Of a stretch of 64,000 nt of DNA, positions 1-43,380 are shown piece by piece (positions within the stretch are counted from its first letter, which is position 1; each line of letters starts with the position of its first letter). The DNA comes from Alkalibacterium thalassium (lineage in GTDB: Bacteria; Bacillota; Bacilli; Lactobacillales; Carnobacteriaceae_A): the NCBI RefSeq assembly GCF_900101165.1, contig NZ_FNFK01000002.1, positions 26,661 to 90,660 of the forward strand, given 5' to 3'. Made by a program: the position numbers and the translations under genes. A model generated the notes under the pieces. That model did no database searches, was not told the DNA's origin, and saw only the letters and a program-made list of their open reading frames with translations.

Positions 1-104
1 AATGATGGCAAATCTCTATTTTCAAGGGTATTAACAAATAGCCAACCTTGTTATATCAACGTTTATTCGTCATCCAAGTTAAGAACAGACATAAATGCCT
101 CTTG
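1..104. repeat. attL: Left attachment site (attL), copy of lepA 3' end
   Basis: This segment is identical to 43277-43380 except at base 96 (T here, C at 43372); identity stops at 105. The mismatch is synonymous in the lepA reading frame (GCA versus GCG, Ala), which fits one copy coming from attP and the other from the host. The repeat could extend left of the window, so 104 bp is a minimum. Bases left of the core would be the host DNA that originally followed lepA. Confidence 0.92.
63..104 (-). pseudogene. Displaced 3' tail of lepA within attL
   Basis: The complement strand encodes the last 13 residues of LepA ([13 protein letters not shown]) and its stop codon, with no start or upstream lepA sequence. 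It is the by-product of site-specific integration: the functional lepA at 43339 carries its own copy of these codons, so the gene is not disrupted. The fragment begins exactly at a codon boundary and is followed by unrelated phage sequence. Confidence 0.85.
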
Positions 105-375: not shown

Positions 376-627
376 TTATTCCGTTCTTCTTATACCTTCC
401 TTCAATGCAGCTTTATATAACTCCCCCAAAGTACTGGTGTGCAATTTAACACCCATAGATCGTTGCTGCAGTATGTTAGGTATGTAGTCTTCCTGGATTC
501 CATTTATATAGTGGTCGATGTAGCTGCCATCTAAAGTGCTATAGATGATCGATACTTTACTGCCGCCTCCGTATTCAGACACTTGCTCTTTTATAGACAT
601 TATCAATCCATTTAGTTCGTTCATCAT
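376..627 (-). CDS. Small hypothetical prophage-end protein (83 aa)
   Basis: I do not recognise this protein. It is 83 residues, mixed charged and polar, without a membrane segment or cysteine motif. The start is supported by a strong AGGAGG-type site (635-641) seven bases upstream of the first ATG; a second ATG follows directly. It is the outermost gene before the left att site, transcribed leftward and divergent from the YolD-like gene, with which it shares a 148-bp AT-rich intergenic region. Position next to att suggests an accessory (lysogenic conversion) gene, but there is no sequence clue to function. Confidence 0.6.
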   Translation of the reverse strand: MMNELNGLIMSIKEQVSEYGGGSKVSIIYSTLDGSYIDHYINGIQEDYIPNILQQRSMGVKLHTSTLGELYKAALKEGIRRTE

Positions 628-775: not shown

Positions 776-1198
776 ATGGAGGAAGAAGTAGTTGTGCTTA
801 GTCCTGATCGGCTAGGCTATAAAGATAGAGGAAAGATGAAGTGGCAAGGATTAATGTTGTCTGATCACAACGCTGCTTTGAAACAGATGAAAGAAGATAA
901 CAAGAAACAATACGGCGTGGAGAAAGAACAGATGACTACCGAAGAAGTATCTGAGGTGTTATATAAGGCATACATATTGAAAAAGCCAGTTGCTATTCAA
1001 GCGAACGTATTAAGAGATGGTCATTATTATCCAGATGTAAAATGCATAGTCAAAGGGTATACCGGAGAAAATATTTATTTGCAATTGAAAGATGGCCAGA
1101 TGAAGAAGGTTAGTATTTACTTGATTAGGCATGTGGAGTACATGGACTCAGCGGAATGGTACGTTAAAAGAAAGCATAAAAAAAAGCCAACCTTTTAA
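776..1198 (+). CDS. YolD-like family protein
   Basis: This 140-residue protein carries the YolD-like signature near its N-terminus (DRG-x-MKWQGLMLSDH, about residues 18-32) followed by a beta-rich C-terminal half. YolD-like proteins (PF08863) are commonly encoded beside Y-family DNA polymerases of the UvrX/YqjW type and are thought to act with them in the response to DNA damage; no such polymerase is seen here, so this is an orphan copy. It is rightward, opposite to its neighbours, with its own promoter, and its last codons overlap the stem of a terminator serving a leftward ncRNA candidate. It sits in the accessory zone beside attL. Family assignment is fairly secure; its role in the prophage is unknown. 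Confidence 0.75.
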   Translation: MEEEVVVLSPDRLGYKDRGKMKWQGLMLSDHNAALKQMKEDNKKQYGVEKEQMTTEEVSEVLYKAYILKKPVAIQANVLRDGHYYPDVKCIVKGYTGENIYLQLKDGQMKKVSIYLIRHVEYMDSAEWYVKRKHKKKPTF

Positions 1199-1319
1199 AG
1201 AAGGCTTTAACTCTTATAATAAAACCCCTCTTTAGGGGCCAGATGGAGCGGCGTACTTAAGATACGCTTAATTTCAATAATCACTTTCATCTGTAAACAG
1301 TGTAAGTCTCCTTACCTGT
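1178..1319 (-). ncRNA. Structured small RNA candidate (about 140 nt)
   Basis: A leftward promoter (1326-1354) is followed by no convincing ORF but by a chain of hairpins on the transcribed strand: GTAAG-GAGA-CTTAC (a GNRA-type loop that exposes a GGAG-like sequence), GCGTA-N7-TACGC, CCCCT-N4-AGGGG, and a terminator (stem AAAGCC/GGCTTT, 1183-1208) ending in a run of eight U (1178-1185). The predicted RNA ends antisense to the last codons of the YolD-like gene. The only ATG-initiated reading frame is 28 codons and lies 17 nt from the nearest Shine-Dalgarno-like motif. A regulatory RNA or the RNA part of a toxin-antitoxin pair is possible; no known RNA family is recognised. Confidence 0.5.
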
Positions 1320-1325
1320 GACCAA

Positions 1326-1354
1326 ATTGTACTACACTTTATGGTAAATGTAAA
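1326..1354 (-). promoter_or_regulatory. Promoter of the small RNA candidate
   Basis: On the complement strand TTTACA (1349-1354), a 17-bp spacer and TACAAT (1326-1331) form a near-consensus promoter. It overlaps the 3' end of the DUF3800 gene (stop at 1339), so the RNA starts directly beyond that gene near 1319. Confidence 0.55.
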
Positions 1355-2025
1355 CAATTATGTTTAGAAATCTTTCTAAGTTTTCTATTTTTCAAAACAT
1401 ACGATGCTCTCAGCCTATTTGCTAAAATATCTGCAGCTTGTATTAAATAATTGTTTGAAGAATCGCAATATTCTGTTTGTATTAAACATATATCATGAAA
1501 TATTGGCTTATGTATTTTGCCATAATTAAAATTTATAATGCCCCTAGAAAACTCTTCTTTCACACTCTCAGAAAACCCGTAGAGACCATCCGTGGCAGTG
1601 CCTTGCTGATCAATTAAAAAATGAAAGCTAACGGGTTGTTCAGGATCTATAAGCTTTTCATTAATTAGATTAACGACTTTTTCTTTTATCGCTCTTTTCA
1701 ACGCATAATCTTTATATCTTGTCCTGCTCTTTTTGTCTAACATTATGGAGTCATAAATACTTTCATTTTTAATACAGACTCCAAAACTATGGCAGTCTTT
1801 CAATATATTAAATAAAGCTCTTTTATGTTTGTTTTCTAATTCTGCGGCTTTATATTCCTTGTTCCAGACTAATTCAGCATCAATTTCTTTCAATAATGTT
1901 CTGTACTTTCTTTTAGCATCTTCTTTACTTTCTTTATCTAAAAAAATGTATCCAGCATAAATAAAATACTGTTCATTTCTATGTAAAACTCCAGAATCAT
2001 CCACGTAAACAGTTATATTTTGCAA
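1339..2025 (-). CDS. DUF3800 domain-containing protein
   Basis: The 228-residue protein opens with the DUF3800 signature YVDDSG (residues 7-12) and has the second conserved block QAADILAN (196-203). Acidic residues D9, D10, D139 and D199 are spaced as in a metal-dependent nuclease-like active site, but that reading is inference; the family has no settled biochemical function. The start is TTG, with GGAAGGAA eight bases upstream; no earlier start fits. It lies downstream of the endolysin but behind a terminator (2094-2125), in the accessory zone near attL, and the promoter of a structured RNA overlaps its 3' end. Members occur in phages and other mobile elements, which suits a defence or lysogenic-conversion role without proving it. 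Confidence 0.75.
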   Translation of the reverse strand: MQNITVYVDDSGVLHRNEQYFIYAGYIFLDKESKEDAKRKYRTLLKEIDAELVWNKEYKAAELENKHKRALFNILKDCHSFGVCIKNESIYDSIMLDKKSRTRYKDYALKRAIKEKVVNLINEKLIDPEQPVSFHFLIDQQGTATDGLYGFSESVKEEFSRGIINFNYGKIHKPIFHDICLIQTEYCDSSNNYLIQAADILANRLRASYVLKNRKLRKISKHNCLHLP

Positions 2026-2093
2026 AAGAAACGTTCCTTCCTTATAAGAGTTGATATTATTATATCACAATCGCTCACACCCACCAATACAAA

Positions 2094-2125
2094 ATAAAAA
2101 TCCCCCACCGATTAAGGTGAGGGGT
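2094..2125 (-). terminator. Terminator after the phage lysis genes
   Basis: On the complement strand a stem of ACCCCTCACC pairing with GGTGGGGGA-type sequence (2101-2125) is followed by ATTTTTATTTT. It lies 13 bp beyond the endolysin stop codon and should close the late transcript, separating the accessory DUF3800 gene. Confidence 0.75.
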
Positions 2126-4756: not shown

Positions 4757-7120
4757 TTAAACCCCCTCTACTGTGATTTGCGGGACCCCGTTGACAATCT
4801 TGATAGACCACTTGTAAAACTTCCCTGTCACATCATCTTTGATAGTGTAGCGTGAGTCATAGAACTTGAGTGACTTATTCCCGTTGGGTCCAGGTGCGTC
4901 AAACTCATAGGTCAGGAAGACTAAGTCTCCGTCAGATAAACCAGGGTGTGTGAAACTGTTACCGGTGATAACCGCTTTGGACACGTCCAGTTCTACCTCA
5001 TTACCTGTCATGAAGTCCACTACACTGAGTGATTCCAGTGATTTGATAGCATGCGACGTGTTAGTAGTGGTTAATCCACCAAAGTACATGCCTGCGTCTG
5101 CTTGATACTGTTCAAAGTAGACCGTTCCTTTAGGGTGAGCAATGACGTTACCTGTAGTGACATTTTTGCGGACTATTGGTTCTTCTAGTTGGTAGTAGAT
5201 TCTGGTTCCTGCTAGGGCTGTTCGGGCCGCTGCTAAGGTTGTGTTTAAGGGGAAATTAAAATCTAGTCTACCTCCATCAGCTAAGTTAGTTGCATAGAGG
5301 TTTGGAACATAATTTCCATCTATACCAAAATGTATTTCTGTCCAATTAACTACTAGAAAACTACCTTGAATGCCTGGTACAGCGTTTATTGTTCTTGAAG
5401 GCAATCTATCAAATAAGACATGGGCTTGACTGTAGTTGGTCCTAGGTAGAACACGTATAACGTCCCCCTCAACCAACGTATGCTCCCCAACCCTCTGAAT
5501 AAAGTCCCCATCTGCGGTAATCTCATCAGCTACTCCGTTAGGTAAACGGTTGAGTTTGACAGGTTCTACGTATTGGACAGTTTCTGTGTAGGGCTCATAA
5601 GGTGATGTAGACCGTACCCGTCCAGGTGTGAAAGACTTTGTGCCGTTGAAGTAGTTGTCAAAGATGATGTCACACTGTTCTTTGGTCGGTTCATTGCCTG
5701 CTCCAAAGATTTGGGTGAGGTTGATAGCTTGAATGTAATCCAGCTCGAGTACCTCTCCTACCAAAAGAGGTGCATAGATACGCATTATTGTATTGTTAGT
5801 AATAGTGCCTATACCGCTATTAATCTGCCATTGACCCGTAGACCCTGAATACGACCAACCCGCTTGACCATCATATAGTTGTAATCTAGTACCAGCAGGC
5901 GCACGGTATCTTGTACCGATGTATACTTTGGAACCTATTGGTTGGATGAATGAACGCTGAGCACCTGCTGTGGGGTTGTCAGTCACCGCCCGTACTTCTA
6001 GTATTGACCCATTTACCGTAATGGTTGAGCCGGGTCGGGCTGCAAATCCTGTAGTCCCATCACTAAAGTCACCATTCTTAATCAACTGAGTCGCTGTAAA
6101 CCCTTTAATGGTAGCGTCCAGTGCACCGTTCCCTGCGTTCACGGGTAGACTGGCAATGTTAGCGTTTGTTTCTAGCGTCTGTTTAGCTTCTTGATTGACG
6201 TTGACATTAGAGAGGGTGGCGGCAAGGTCTTTTGTTTCTTTAGACGCGCGCGTGACCGCTAATTTGTTGTTGTTGATGTCCTGCTCGGCGGTGTCTAGTC
6301 GCTCGTCCTGTTCAGCGTCTCTATCGTCTGCTTTATCTAGCCTTACTCCCAGGGTTTCTTCTTCACCACGAGCCAATATCACCTCTGAATCTTCGGTTAC
6401 TTTGCTGACCGATTCGTTAAATACCTGCTTAGTTTGTGCCAACTGTGCGGTAACTTCTGTCAACTTAGGCGCATATTCTTCTTCCAGACTTTGCAGTTTC
6501 TCGTTGATGTTCGTCTGCAAAACACCCGTTTCCAGCAACTCATGATAGAGTGCCTGCCGTGCTTCTTCATTGCTGATACGCTCATTCTCATTCGTCTGAC
6601 GTGCCGATTCATTCGCTTGAAAAGTCTGCTGGCGGTTCGATTCATTCGTTTCAAAAGTTGTCTGCCTGTCTGCTTCTGCAGCTACGAAATCGTCGATATA
6701 TCTTTGTGCCTCCGATGTGAGTGTCGTCCAATCATGGATCATAACCTCTGTGGCTACTTTTCCGTCCAACCCAGATTCGATAACAAATTCAAATTTAGGT
6801 GTCGCTAATTCTCTTTGCCCAACTGTGACGATGAGTTGTGCTTGCGCTGTACCTGAATGTTTCCCTTCGTTGTCTTTGAGAACATAGCTGAATTCAGTAC
6901 CATTTCTTGTCACGTCCGTTACCTGATAGAACGACCCATCTCGCATATATAACAGCACTTCTGCACTCGCACCTGACAAGTCACTTTCGGCCATGTCTTT
7001 CACGTCAAATATCAACTGTGCGCTGTTTATATCGTTCGTATAGACCAAAGGCCTCTTCATCGTTATAAGCCTATCTGTGGACGTTAGAAACGTCTCAAAT
7101 CGTATGTCTTTAATTGCCAC
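4757..7120 (-). CDS. BppU-type baseplate upper protein / receptor-binding region
   Basis: The 787-residue protein has an N-terminal BppU domain (about 1-140: MAIKDIRFETFL, RPLVYTND, QLIFDV), a long Q/E/N-rich coiled coil (about 145-300), and a beta-rich C-terminus (about 335-787) that contains a carbohydrate-binding-module-like stretch starting near NGDFSDGTTGF. In lactococcal and related siphoviruses BppU links the distal tail ring to receptor-binding proteins; here the C-terminal half probably contacts the host surface itself. GTG start with GGAGGAG ten bases upstream. Placement directly after the tail endopeptidase and DUF1617 genes supports a baseplate role. Confidence 0.82.
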   Translation of the reverse strand: MAIKDIRFETFLTSTDRLITMKRPLVYTNDINSAQLIFDVKDMAESDLSGASAEVLLYMRDGSFYQVTDVTRNGTEFSYVLKDNEGKHSGTAQAQLIVTVGQRELATPKFEFVIESGLDGKVATEVMIHDWTTLTSEAQRYIDDFVAAEADRQTTFETNESNRQQTFQANESARQTNENERISNEEARQALYHELLETGVLQTNINEKLQSLEEEYAPKLTEVTAQLAQTKQVFNESVSKVTEDSEVILARGEEETLGVRLDKADDRDAEQDERLDTAEQDINNNKLAVTRASKETKDLAATLSNVNVNQEAKQTLETNANIASLPVNAGNGALDATIKGFTATQLIKNGDFSDGTTGFAARPGSTITVNGSILEVRAVTDNPTAGAQRSFIQPIGSKVYIGTRYRAPAGTRLQLYDGQAGWSYSGSTGQWQINSGIGTITNNTIMRIYAPLLVGEVLELDYIQAINLTQIFGAGNEPTKEQCDIIFDNYFNGTKSFTPGRVRSTSPYEPYTETVQYVEPVKLNRLPNGVADEITADGDFIQRVGEHTLVEGDVIRVLPRTNYSQAHVLFDRLPSRTINAVPGIQGSFLVVNWTEIHFGIDGNYVPNLYATNLADGGRLDFNFPLNTTLAAARTALAGTRIYYQLEEPIVRKNVTTGNVIAHPKGTVYFEQYQADAGMYFGGLTTTNTSHAIKSLESLSVVDFMTGNEVELDVSKAVITGNSFTHPGLSDGDLVFLTYEFDAPGPNGNKSLKFYDSRYTIKDDVTGKFYKWSIKIVNGVPQITVEGV

Positions 7121-43243: not shown

Positions 43244-43290
43244 GATTTGCCATCAATTGCCGACAGATGATGGCAAAATGATGGCAAATC
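43244..43290. promoter_or_regulatory. Integrase binding repeats beside attR
   Basis: GATTTGCCATCA (43244-43255) is inverted by TGATGGCAAATC (43279-43290), with a third, directly repeated ATGATGGCAAA at 43267-43277. These 10-12 bp sites flank the start of the att core and are good candidates for integrase arm or core sites. The attL copy retains only the TGATGGCAAATC unit (3-14) within view. Confidence 0.55.
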
Positions 43291-43380
43291 TCTATTTTCA
43301 AGGGTATTAACAAATAGCCAACCTTGTTATATCAACGTTTATTCGTCATCCAAGTTAAGAACAGACATAAACGCCTCTTG
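43277..43380. repeat. attR: Right attachment site (attR) at lepA 3' end
   Basis: It repeats bases 1-104 with a single mismatch at 43372. It spans the last 42 bases of lepA including the stop (43339-43380) and 62 bases beyond. Left of it is phage DNA (int), right of it is lepA proper. Confidence 0.92.

What the first reader, a model, noticed from the sequence alone, without database searches (positions are those of the whole stretch)
1178..1354. Candidate structured small RNA between DUF3800 and YolD-like genes
A near-consensus leftward promoter, four successive hairpins and a strong terminator with eight U define a unit of about 140 nt without a convincing ORF. The first hairpin presents a Shine-Dalgarno-like GGAG in a GNRA-type loop. 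Being next to a DUF3800 gene and attL, it might be a phage regulatory RNA, or the RNA partner of a toxin-antitoxin or defence pair with DUF3800.
Basis: partly seen in the sequence, partly recalled or inferred. Interest (0 to 1): 0.6.

Follow-up and report, generated by a model that had tools for sequence, protein, structure and literature searches.

The report
Prophage small RNA beside DUF3800 nuclease
A prophage carries a short folded RNA, already catalogued as DUF3800-I, that seems to be made from its own promoter next to its partner gene for a ribonuclease-like protein; the two probably form an RNA-protein module, most likely an RNA that restrains the protein, but what they do has not been tested.

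Summary
Window 1214-1326(-) matches Rfam RF02969, DUF3800-I RNA, at 72.1 bits (cut-off 44.2). Its stems covary over 29 distinct relatives. In a sample of 398 genomes of the class the RNA is in 5, and a close homologue of this DUF3800 protein in the same 5, although 47 have some DUF3800.

Three points go beyond the Rfam match. (1) A sigma-A-type promoter sits at one fixed place before the first stem in most relatives (23 of 29 score at least 9 of 12; shuffled mean 0.5), so the RNA should begin on its first paired base. (2) The RNA lies after, before or convergent to the gene, so it should work as a separate molecule. (3) The DUF3800 protein is predicted to fold like RNase HII.

The GGAG loop is not conserved. 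Best reading: prophage cargo in which the RNA binds and restrains an RNase H-fold nuclease, by analogy with AbiF/RCd22 and type III toxin-antitoxin pairs. Main rival: the RNA is a cofactor the nuclease needs. Function is untested.

The parts
1214..1319 (-). DUF3800-I RNA, predicted primary transcript from +1 to just after the first terminator (106 nt)
   Evidence: Rfam RF02969 match 1214-1326, 72.1 bits; +1 inferred from the conserved promoter
1178..1319 (-). alternative longer transcript ending at the second terminator (142 nt)
   Evidence: eight-U run at 1185-1178 after a hairpin
1349..1354 (-). -35 box TTTACA; overlaps the end of the DUF3800 ORF
1326..1331 (-). -10 box TACAAT; its last T is position 1 of the Rfam match
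1297..1319 (-). P1 hairpin, starts at predicted +1
1240..1293 (-). branched domain P2/P3 with P4 and the conserved P5 hairpin (GCGUA...UACGC)
1224..1239 (-). terminator hairpin T1 (U-rich tail 1223-1214)
1178..1208 (-). second terminator-like hairpin T2 with eight U (not listed by the scan)
1339..2025 (-). DUF3800 protein gene (228 aa, TTG start), partner of the RNA; predicted RNase HII-like fold
   Evidence: Pfam PF12686 50.1 bits; model pLDDT 89.7; RNase HII Z 14.0
2059..2087 (-). putative promoter of DUF3800, TTGGTG-17-TATAAT
   Evidence: exact pattern once in the window, 0.02 expected; the pattern was written after seeing the site by eye, so weak
776..1198 (+). YolD-like ORF, convergent with the RNA
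   Evidence: PF08863 22.9 bits, below its cut-off of 27.5
1..104 (.). attL; 99% copy at 43277-43380

Best explanation
It is a DUF3800-I RNA: a free-standing structured RNA of about 106 nt, transcribed from its own promoter and starting on the first paired base of P1, that forms a ribonucleoprotein with the DUF3800 protein encoded beside it. Shown here by comparison: family membership, covarying structure, fixed promoter, tight genetic pairing in three gene arrangements, position between the lysin gene and the attachment site. Predicted: the protein has an RNase HII-like fold. Inferred, not shown: transcription itself; that the RNA binds its cognate DUF3800 protein and holds its nuclease in check (type III-like antitoxin); that the pair protects the lysogen or keeps the prophage in place.
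For: Family: 72.1 bits, cut-off 44.2. Structure: 91.1% of cells paired, against 72.3% in shuffles and 23-46% when slid; covariation 0.535 against 0.180. Pairing: RNA in 5 of 398 class genomes, close DUF3800 homologue (E<=1e-10) in the same 5 handles, own genome included, while 47 of 398 have some DUF3800. Of 10 phage and plasmid DUF3800 hits, 9 were fetched and 7 of these have the RNA. Arrangements among 29 distinct RNAs: 19 RNA after the gene, 7 before it, 1 convergent, 2 without the gene. Promoter: 23 of 29 at 9 or more of 12; purine at predicted +1 in 29 of 29. In the 6 measured RNA-first cases the gap from the RNA match to the start codon is -4 to 15 nt, too short for a separate promoter, so the gene should be read through the RNA's terminator, as reported for RCd22-abiF (PMC12373285, passages) and as recalled for ToxIN. 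RNA and protein distances correlate, Mantel r 0.61, p 0.0001, 25 pairs; r 0.51 within 18 RNA-last pairs. Fold: RNase HII Z 14.0, rmsd 3.3, 170 aligned. Intact RNA core beside a broken DUF3800 gene: 3 of 16 Enterococcus-type loci, and L. kisonensis.
Against: No transcript, toxicity, binding or defence was tested. Of 40 other DUF3800 loci scanned with about 0.8 kb on each side, 35 have no Rfam-catalogued RNA, so DUF3800 proteins at large need not have an RNA partner. The asymmetric loss is weak evidence: the gene is several times longer than the RNA, most of the 16 loci were found by the RNA, and some may be near clones. No tandem repeat typical of ToxI-like antitoxins was found. The PADLOC hit is weak and partial. 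Correlated distances would also follow from linked descent alone.
Confidence: 0.5

Rival explanations
1. The RNA is an essential cofactor or targeting RNA: the DUF3800 nuclease acts only as an RNP, for example against phage nucleic acid.
For: RNase H-fold proteins include RNA-guided enzymes (Argonaute rows); DUF3800 proteins accompany some Cas12 and type VI-F and V-A2 loci (PMC10910872, PMC12669027, passages); the RNA goes with one close DUF3800 subfamily.
Against: Little room for a guide: in 29 single-sequence folds the longest unpaired run in the first 85 nt is 4-14 nt, and in the window that 14-nt run corresponds to P4 plus the conserved UUAAG, not to free variable sequence. Orphan RNAs in genomes without a DUF3800 match (L044, L048) fit a cofactor less well.
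Confidence: 0.27
2. The RNA is a trans-acting small RNA that base-pairs with host or phage messengers, and DUF3800 matures or consumes it.
For: Own promoter pattern and terminator; Rfam types it as sRNA.
Against: The most conserved stretches lie in or beside stems; P1 loops vary in sequence and size; the tie to one DUF3800 subfamily is not expected of a general regulator. No target search was made.
Confidence: 0.1
3. It is a cis-element of the DUF3800 messenger: a leader, or a 3' end with terminator.
For: In the RNA-first class the gene lies directly behind the RNA's terminator.
Against: The same RNA with the same promoter pattern is found after the gene, convergent to it, and without it.
Confidence: 0.08

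Closest known systems
Rfam RF02969 DUF3800-I RNA
   Same: sequence, structure, DUF3800 linkage
   Different: nothing essential; this copy has an imperfect P4 and a second terminator-like hairpin
DUF3800-VII (RF02967) and DUF3800-VIII (RF03075) RNAs
   Same: small RNAs next to DUF3800 genes
   Different: separate models; L042 carries types I and VII, each beside its own DUF3800 gene
AbiF/Abi_2 with RNA RCd22 of C. difficile (PMC12373285: abstract and passages seen)
   Same: prophage-borne at the lysis module, SigA promoter, terminator, RNA of about 90-130 nt, protein read through from the RNA promoter (as expected for our RNA-first class)
   Different: the protein is Abi_2, linked to Cas13, not RNase H-like; RNA binding and toxicity were shown there, not here
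Type III toxin-antitoxin ToxIN (PMC3475682: abstract seen)
   Same: RNA plus protein pair; a phage-borne RNA mimic of the antitoxin is known
   Different: ToxI is a tandem-repeat RNA; no repeat within this RNA

Membership tests
DUF3800-I RNA (RF02969) | score over Rfam's gathering cut-off over the whole model | tested here: met
   72.1 against 44.2 bits, positions 1-115
DUF3800-I RNA (RF02969) | conserved, covarying secondary structure | tested here: met
DUF3800-I RNA (RF02969) | gene neighbour with a DUF3800 domain | tested here: met
   PF12686 50.1 bits, cut-off 21
Type III toxin-antitoxin system | antitoxin RNA of tandem repeats | tested here: not met
   TRF on 1100-1400 gives one row, 1165-1187, at the distal tail and outside the Rfam match
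Type III toxin-antitoxin system | protein toxic alone, neutralised by direct RNA binding | not testable with these tools
   needs expression and binding assays
Type III toxin-antitoxin system | toxin with ToxN/CptN/TenpN-type fold | tested here: inconclusive
   best matches are RNase HII; no such toxin was compared directly
AbiF/Abi_2 RNA system | Abi_2 domain protein | tested here: not met
   the only Pfam match at E<=0.001 is DUF3800
RNA-guided nuclease (CRISPR or OMEGA type) | variable guide segment attached to a scaffold | tested here: inconclusive
   longest unpaired run 4-14 nt in 29 folds
RNase HII | RNase HII-like fold | tested here: met
   predicted model only: Foldseek E 1.4e-6, TM-scores about 0.5; Z 14.0, rmsd 3.3, 170 aligned
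RNase HII | catalytic DEDD residues in place and cleavage of RNA in hybrids | not tested
   D9, D139, D199 invariant in 14 of 14 proteins and D or E at position 10; superposition and activity not checked

The most novel reading that the evidence does not exclude
DUF3800-I is an RNA-neutralised toxin system built on an RNase HII-like nuclease, a protein type not known to me in RNA-antitoxin pairs; and the RNA also travels alone (L025, a viral fragment; L044 and L048, in whose genomes no DUF3800 match was found) as an antidote that lets its carrier survive hosts or rivals armed with the pair.
Probability: 0.25. Interest if true: 0.75.

Novelty: new member of a known kind. Interest (0 to 1): 0.42.

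Why it matters
The DUF3800 RNA families are catalogued, but none of the papers that I saw gives their function (searches; limits told in the report). A fixed promoter, an inferred 5' end on the first paired base, free gene order and a predicted RNase HII-like partner turn an orphan RNA class into a module that can be tested in a few experiments, and add a candidate to the RNA-protein modules carried by prophages.

Tried and rejected
GGAG in the P1 loop as a functional Shine-Dalgarno-like element: rejected, GGAG is in the first 38 nt of 2 of 29 relatives. Other Rfam assignments (GibS, suhB): far below their cut-offs. Simple 3' UTR or leader: rejected because of the three arrangements. General claim that every DUF3800 has a catalogued RNA: rejected, 35 of 40 further loci have none at the gathering score; these 40 were chosen from the 54 matches, of which 5 are the type I loci and 9 (short, interrupted or weak ones, and three picked for no strong reason) were left out. 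Asymmetric decay as proof of an antitoxin: not accepted; the protein-led scan of viral contigs returned 14 loci, all 14 on contigs already in the RNA-led list (names matched by eye), 3 with a partial DUF3800 and none with the gene but no RNA, too few to test. Nucleotide search of window 1150-2100 in phages: no match. PDB sequence search with the DUF3800 protein: no match up to E 1. PADLOC hit PDC-M04A: 20.4 bits, residues 1-56 only. Pattern hits left out because they did not reach the Rfam cut-off: L012, L016, L019, L022, L024, L035, L038, L040, L045, L049, L053, L055; L011 (same sequence as L045) and L028 (same sequence as L016 around the match) were left out without a scan of their own. Further sister loci with near-identical RNAs (such as L009, L010, L013, L018, L020, L021, L023, L026, L027, L029, L030, L032-L034) were not scanned by cmscan or counted among the 29. 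Before counting, 36 RNAs were cut to 29 by dropping 7 near-identical ones, among them L048 and L054. The core motif was used to find many of the loci, so conservation of P5 is partly built in; the promoter was not used to find any, though the last T of the -10 box is position 1 of the Rfam model.

Full report
Observation. The fold of 1319-1214 is more stable than each of 200 shuffles (z -4.05). No minus-strand ORF of 30 aa or more lies in 1178-1326. The pattern scan lists the first terminator but not the second.

Identity. cmscan of the whole window gives one match over a family cut-off: RF02969, DUF3800-I RNA, 1214-1326(-), 72.1 bits against 44.2, all 115 model positions. The upstream gene 1339-2025(-) encodes a DUF3800 protein (PF12686, 50.1 bits). 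So this is a member of a catalogued class.

Literature. Rfam 15 lists RF02969 among families whose structure was improved by covariation (PMC11701678, passage seen). That DUF3800 is associated with putative ncRNAs is already in print (PMC10910872, passages seen). The paper that I recall as the original description was not held under the two ids tried. A search for DUF3800 found 11 papers, 10 listed; I opened passages of four and judged the other six by title and start of abstract. A phrase search for the RNA family found one paper, Rfam 15; a wider one listed 12 of 153. None of what I saw is a functional study of the RNA; supplements, preprints and most subscription papers were not searched.

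Relatives. Pattern scans, genome searches and protein searches, checked with cmscan or found with the Rfam model itself, gave 36 RNAs over the cut-off that were taken into the count, 29 after removal of 7 near-identical ones. On a MAFFT alignment of the 29, a structure of five helices, with P1, P2, P3 and P5 from RNAalifold and P4 placed by me, has 91.1% of cells paired (shuffled 72.3%), 134 cells with both sides changed (shuffled 46.1) and covariation 0.535 (shuffled 0.180); sliding partners by 1-3 columns gives 23-46% paired. P4 is supported by exchanges such as UA to AU (8 cells), though its innermost pair is poor (17 of 28 cells unpaired). The placing of P4 was chosen after looking at the sequences and trying registers, so its figures flatter it.

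Promoter. With the -10 box forced to end at model position 1 and a spacer of 16-18, the 29 upstream regions match TTGACA/TATAAT at 9.86 of 12 on average; 23 of 29 reach 9 and 27 of 29 reach 8. Dinucleotide shuffles give 5.40 (sd 0.26), on average 0.5 of 29 reaching 9, 3 at most in 500 rounds; other offsets from -12 to +8 give means of 3.4-6.2. In the window the site scores 10. The first Rfam model position is thus the end of the promoter, and transcription should start at model position 8, a purine in 29 of 29 and the first paired base of P1. No start site was measured.

Linkage. In one sample of 398 genomes of the class, the RNA was found in 5 and a close homologue of the window's DUF3800 protein (E up to 1e-10) in 5, with the same handles; one of the five is the window's own genome, leaving 4 of 397. 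Any DUF3800 was found in 47 of 398. In a sample of 398 genomes of the phylum the RNA was found in 3, own genome included. Of 40 other DUF3800 loci, 5 have a DUF3800-VIII RNA and 35 none at Rfam's cut-off. In phage and plasmid records 10 hits were listed, 9 fetched, and 7 of these carry the RNA; the two without it have the lowest identities of the nine (33% and 29%). Among the 29 distinct RNAs, the RNA follows the gene on the same strand in 19, precedes it in 7, is convergent in 1 (L047), and has no gene beside it in 2 (L025, L044); in two of these (L051, L046) the locus shows only part of the gene and the rest was seen in the genome search. In 6 of the 7 RNA-first cases the gap from the RNA match to the start codon was measured: -4 to 15 nt (start codons chosen by rule). 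In 18 of the 19 RNA-last cases predicted +1 lies 19-83 nt after the stop codon. RNA and protein distances correlate (Mantel r 0.61, p 0.0001, 25 pairs; 18 RNA-last pairs r 0.51, p 0.0001; 6 RNA-first pairs r 0.89, p 0.04). Linked descent alone would also give this.

Orphans. L044 (Ligilactobacillus aviarius) and its near-copy L048 (a metagenome-assembled genome) score about 70 bits, and no PF12686 match was found in either genome (completeness not given). L025 scores 70.5 bits on a 10,169-base viral record without DUF3800, which may be a fragment. In L. kisonensis (L054) only a C-terminal remnant of the gene is left beside the RNA, and the genome's one PF12686 match lies on another contig. Three of 16 Enterococcus-type loci have a broken gene and an unchanged RNA core and flanks. 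A phage-borne RNA mimic of an antitoxin is known for ToxIN (PMC3475682, abstract seen).

Protein. The AlphaFold2 model from 14 sequences has mean pLDDT 89.7, pTM 0.87. Foldseek ranks RNase HII first (1eke_A, E 1.4e-6, TM about 0.5); VIA-align gives 1eke_B Z 14.0, rmsd 3.3, 170 aligned, 17% identity, with Argonaute and endonuclease V rows lower. An RNase H fold with a catalytic rearrangement was already reported for a CRISPR-linked DUF3800 protein (PMC10910872, passages seen). D9, D139 and D199 are invariant in 14 of 14 proteins; the D-[DE]-S-G motif resembles the DEAGRG motif of RNase HII (recalled). The window protein has Q at 140, where E is nearly invariant; whether that matters is unknown.

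Context. A 104-nt direct repeat, 99% identical, flanks the prophage at 1-104 and 43277-43380, beside an integrase-like ORF and a LepA-like ORF (these two ORF names are read from the sequence, not from a search). DUF3800 and the RNA lie between the amidase gene (PF01520) and attL. The same order, lysin then DUF3800, occurs in records L064, L065, L066 and L068, with the RNA following in the first three; in L062 the pair lies near the integrase. This is where prophage cargo genes often lie (general knowledge).

Mechanism. A structured RNA with a fixed promoter, tied to one protein subfamily but free in gene order, is best read as one half of an RNA-protein complex. In the RNA-first class the architecture (promoter, RNA, terminator, then gene) is that of RCd22-abiF in C. 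difficile, where the RNA was shown to bind and neutralise a toxic protein (PMC12373285, abstract and passages seen). I therefore favour an RNA that restrains an RNase H-fold nuclease (0.5) over an RNA that the nuclease needs (0.27). Nothing here measured expression, binding, toxicity or defence.

Novelty. Known RNA family, known domain, known association, no function that I found. New here, as far as the searches go: the fixed promoter and inferred 5' end, the three arrangements on one promoter pattern with orphan RNAs, and the RNase HII match for this subfamily. The original description, which I could not read, may already contain some of this.

Noticed in passing
L042:5400-5490 and 5498-6235: A second RNA, DUF3800-VII, beside a second, different DUF3800 gene about 2 kb from the type I RNA: two RNA/DUF3800 pairs in one locus.
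   Followed up: partly
window 776-1198: YolD-like ORF near attL, below Pfam's cut-off, convergent with the RNA; the tail of the RNA's second terminator lies inside its 3' end.
   Followed up: no
window 376-627 (-): 83-aa ORF between attL and yolD without a Pfam match at E 0.001; by offset its stop is also the first base of the IMG/VR prophage record.
   Followed up: no
L044 and L048: Near-identical orphan DUF3800-I RNA with the same downstream genes in two different genera, suggesting transfer of the RNA without DUF3800.
   Followed up: partly
L066:5092-5157: int-alpA RNA (RF02996) on the same plasmid-borne prophage-like region as a DUF3800-I pair.
   Followed up: no
L002, L005, L014, L039 and window: In several relatives, as in the window, a second terminator-like hairpin with a T run seems to follow the first (read by eye).
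   Followed up: no
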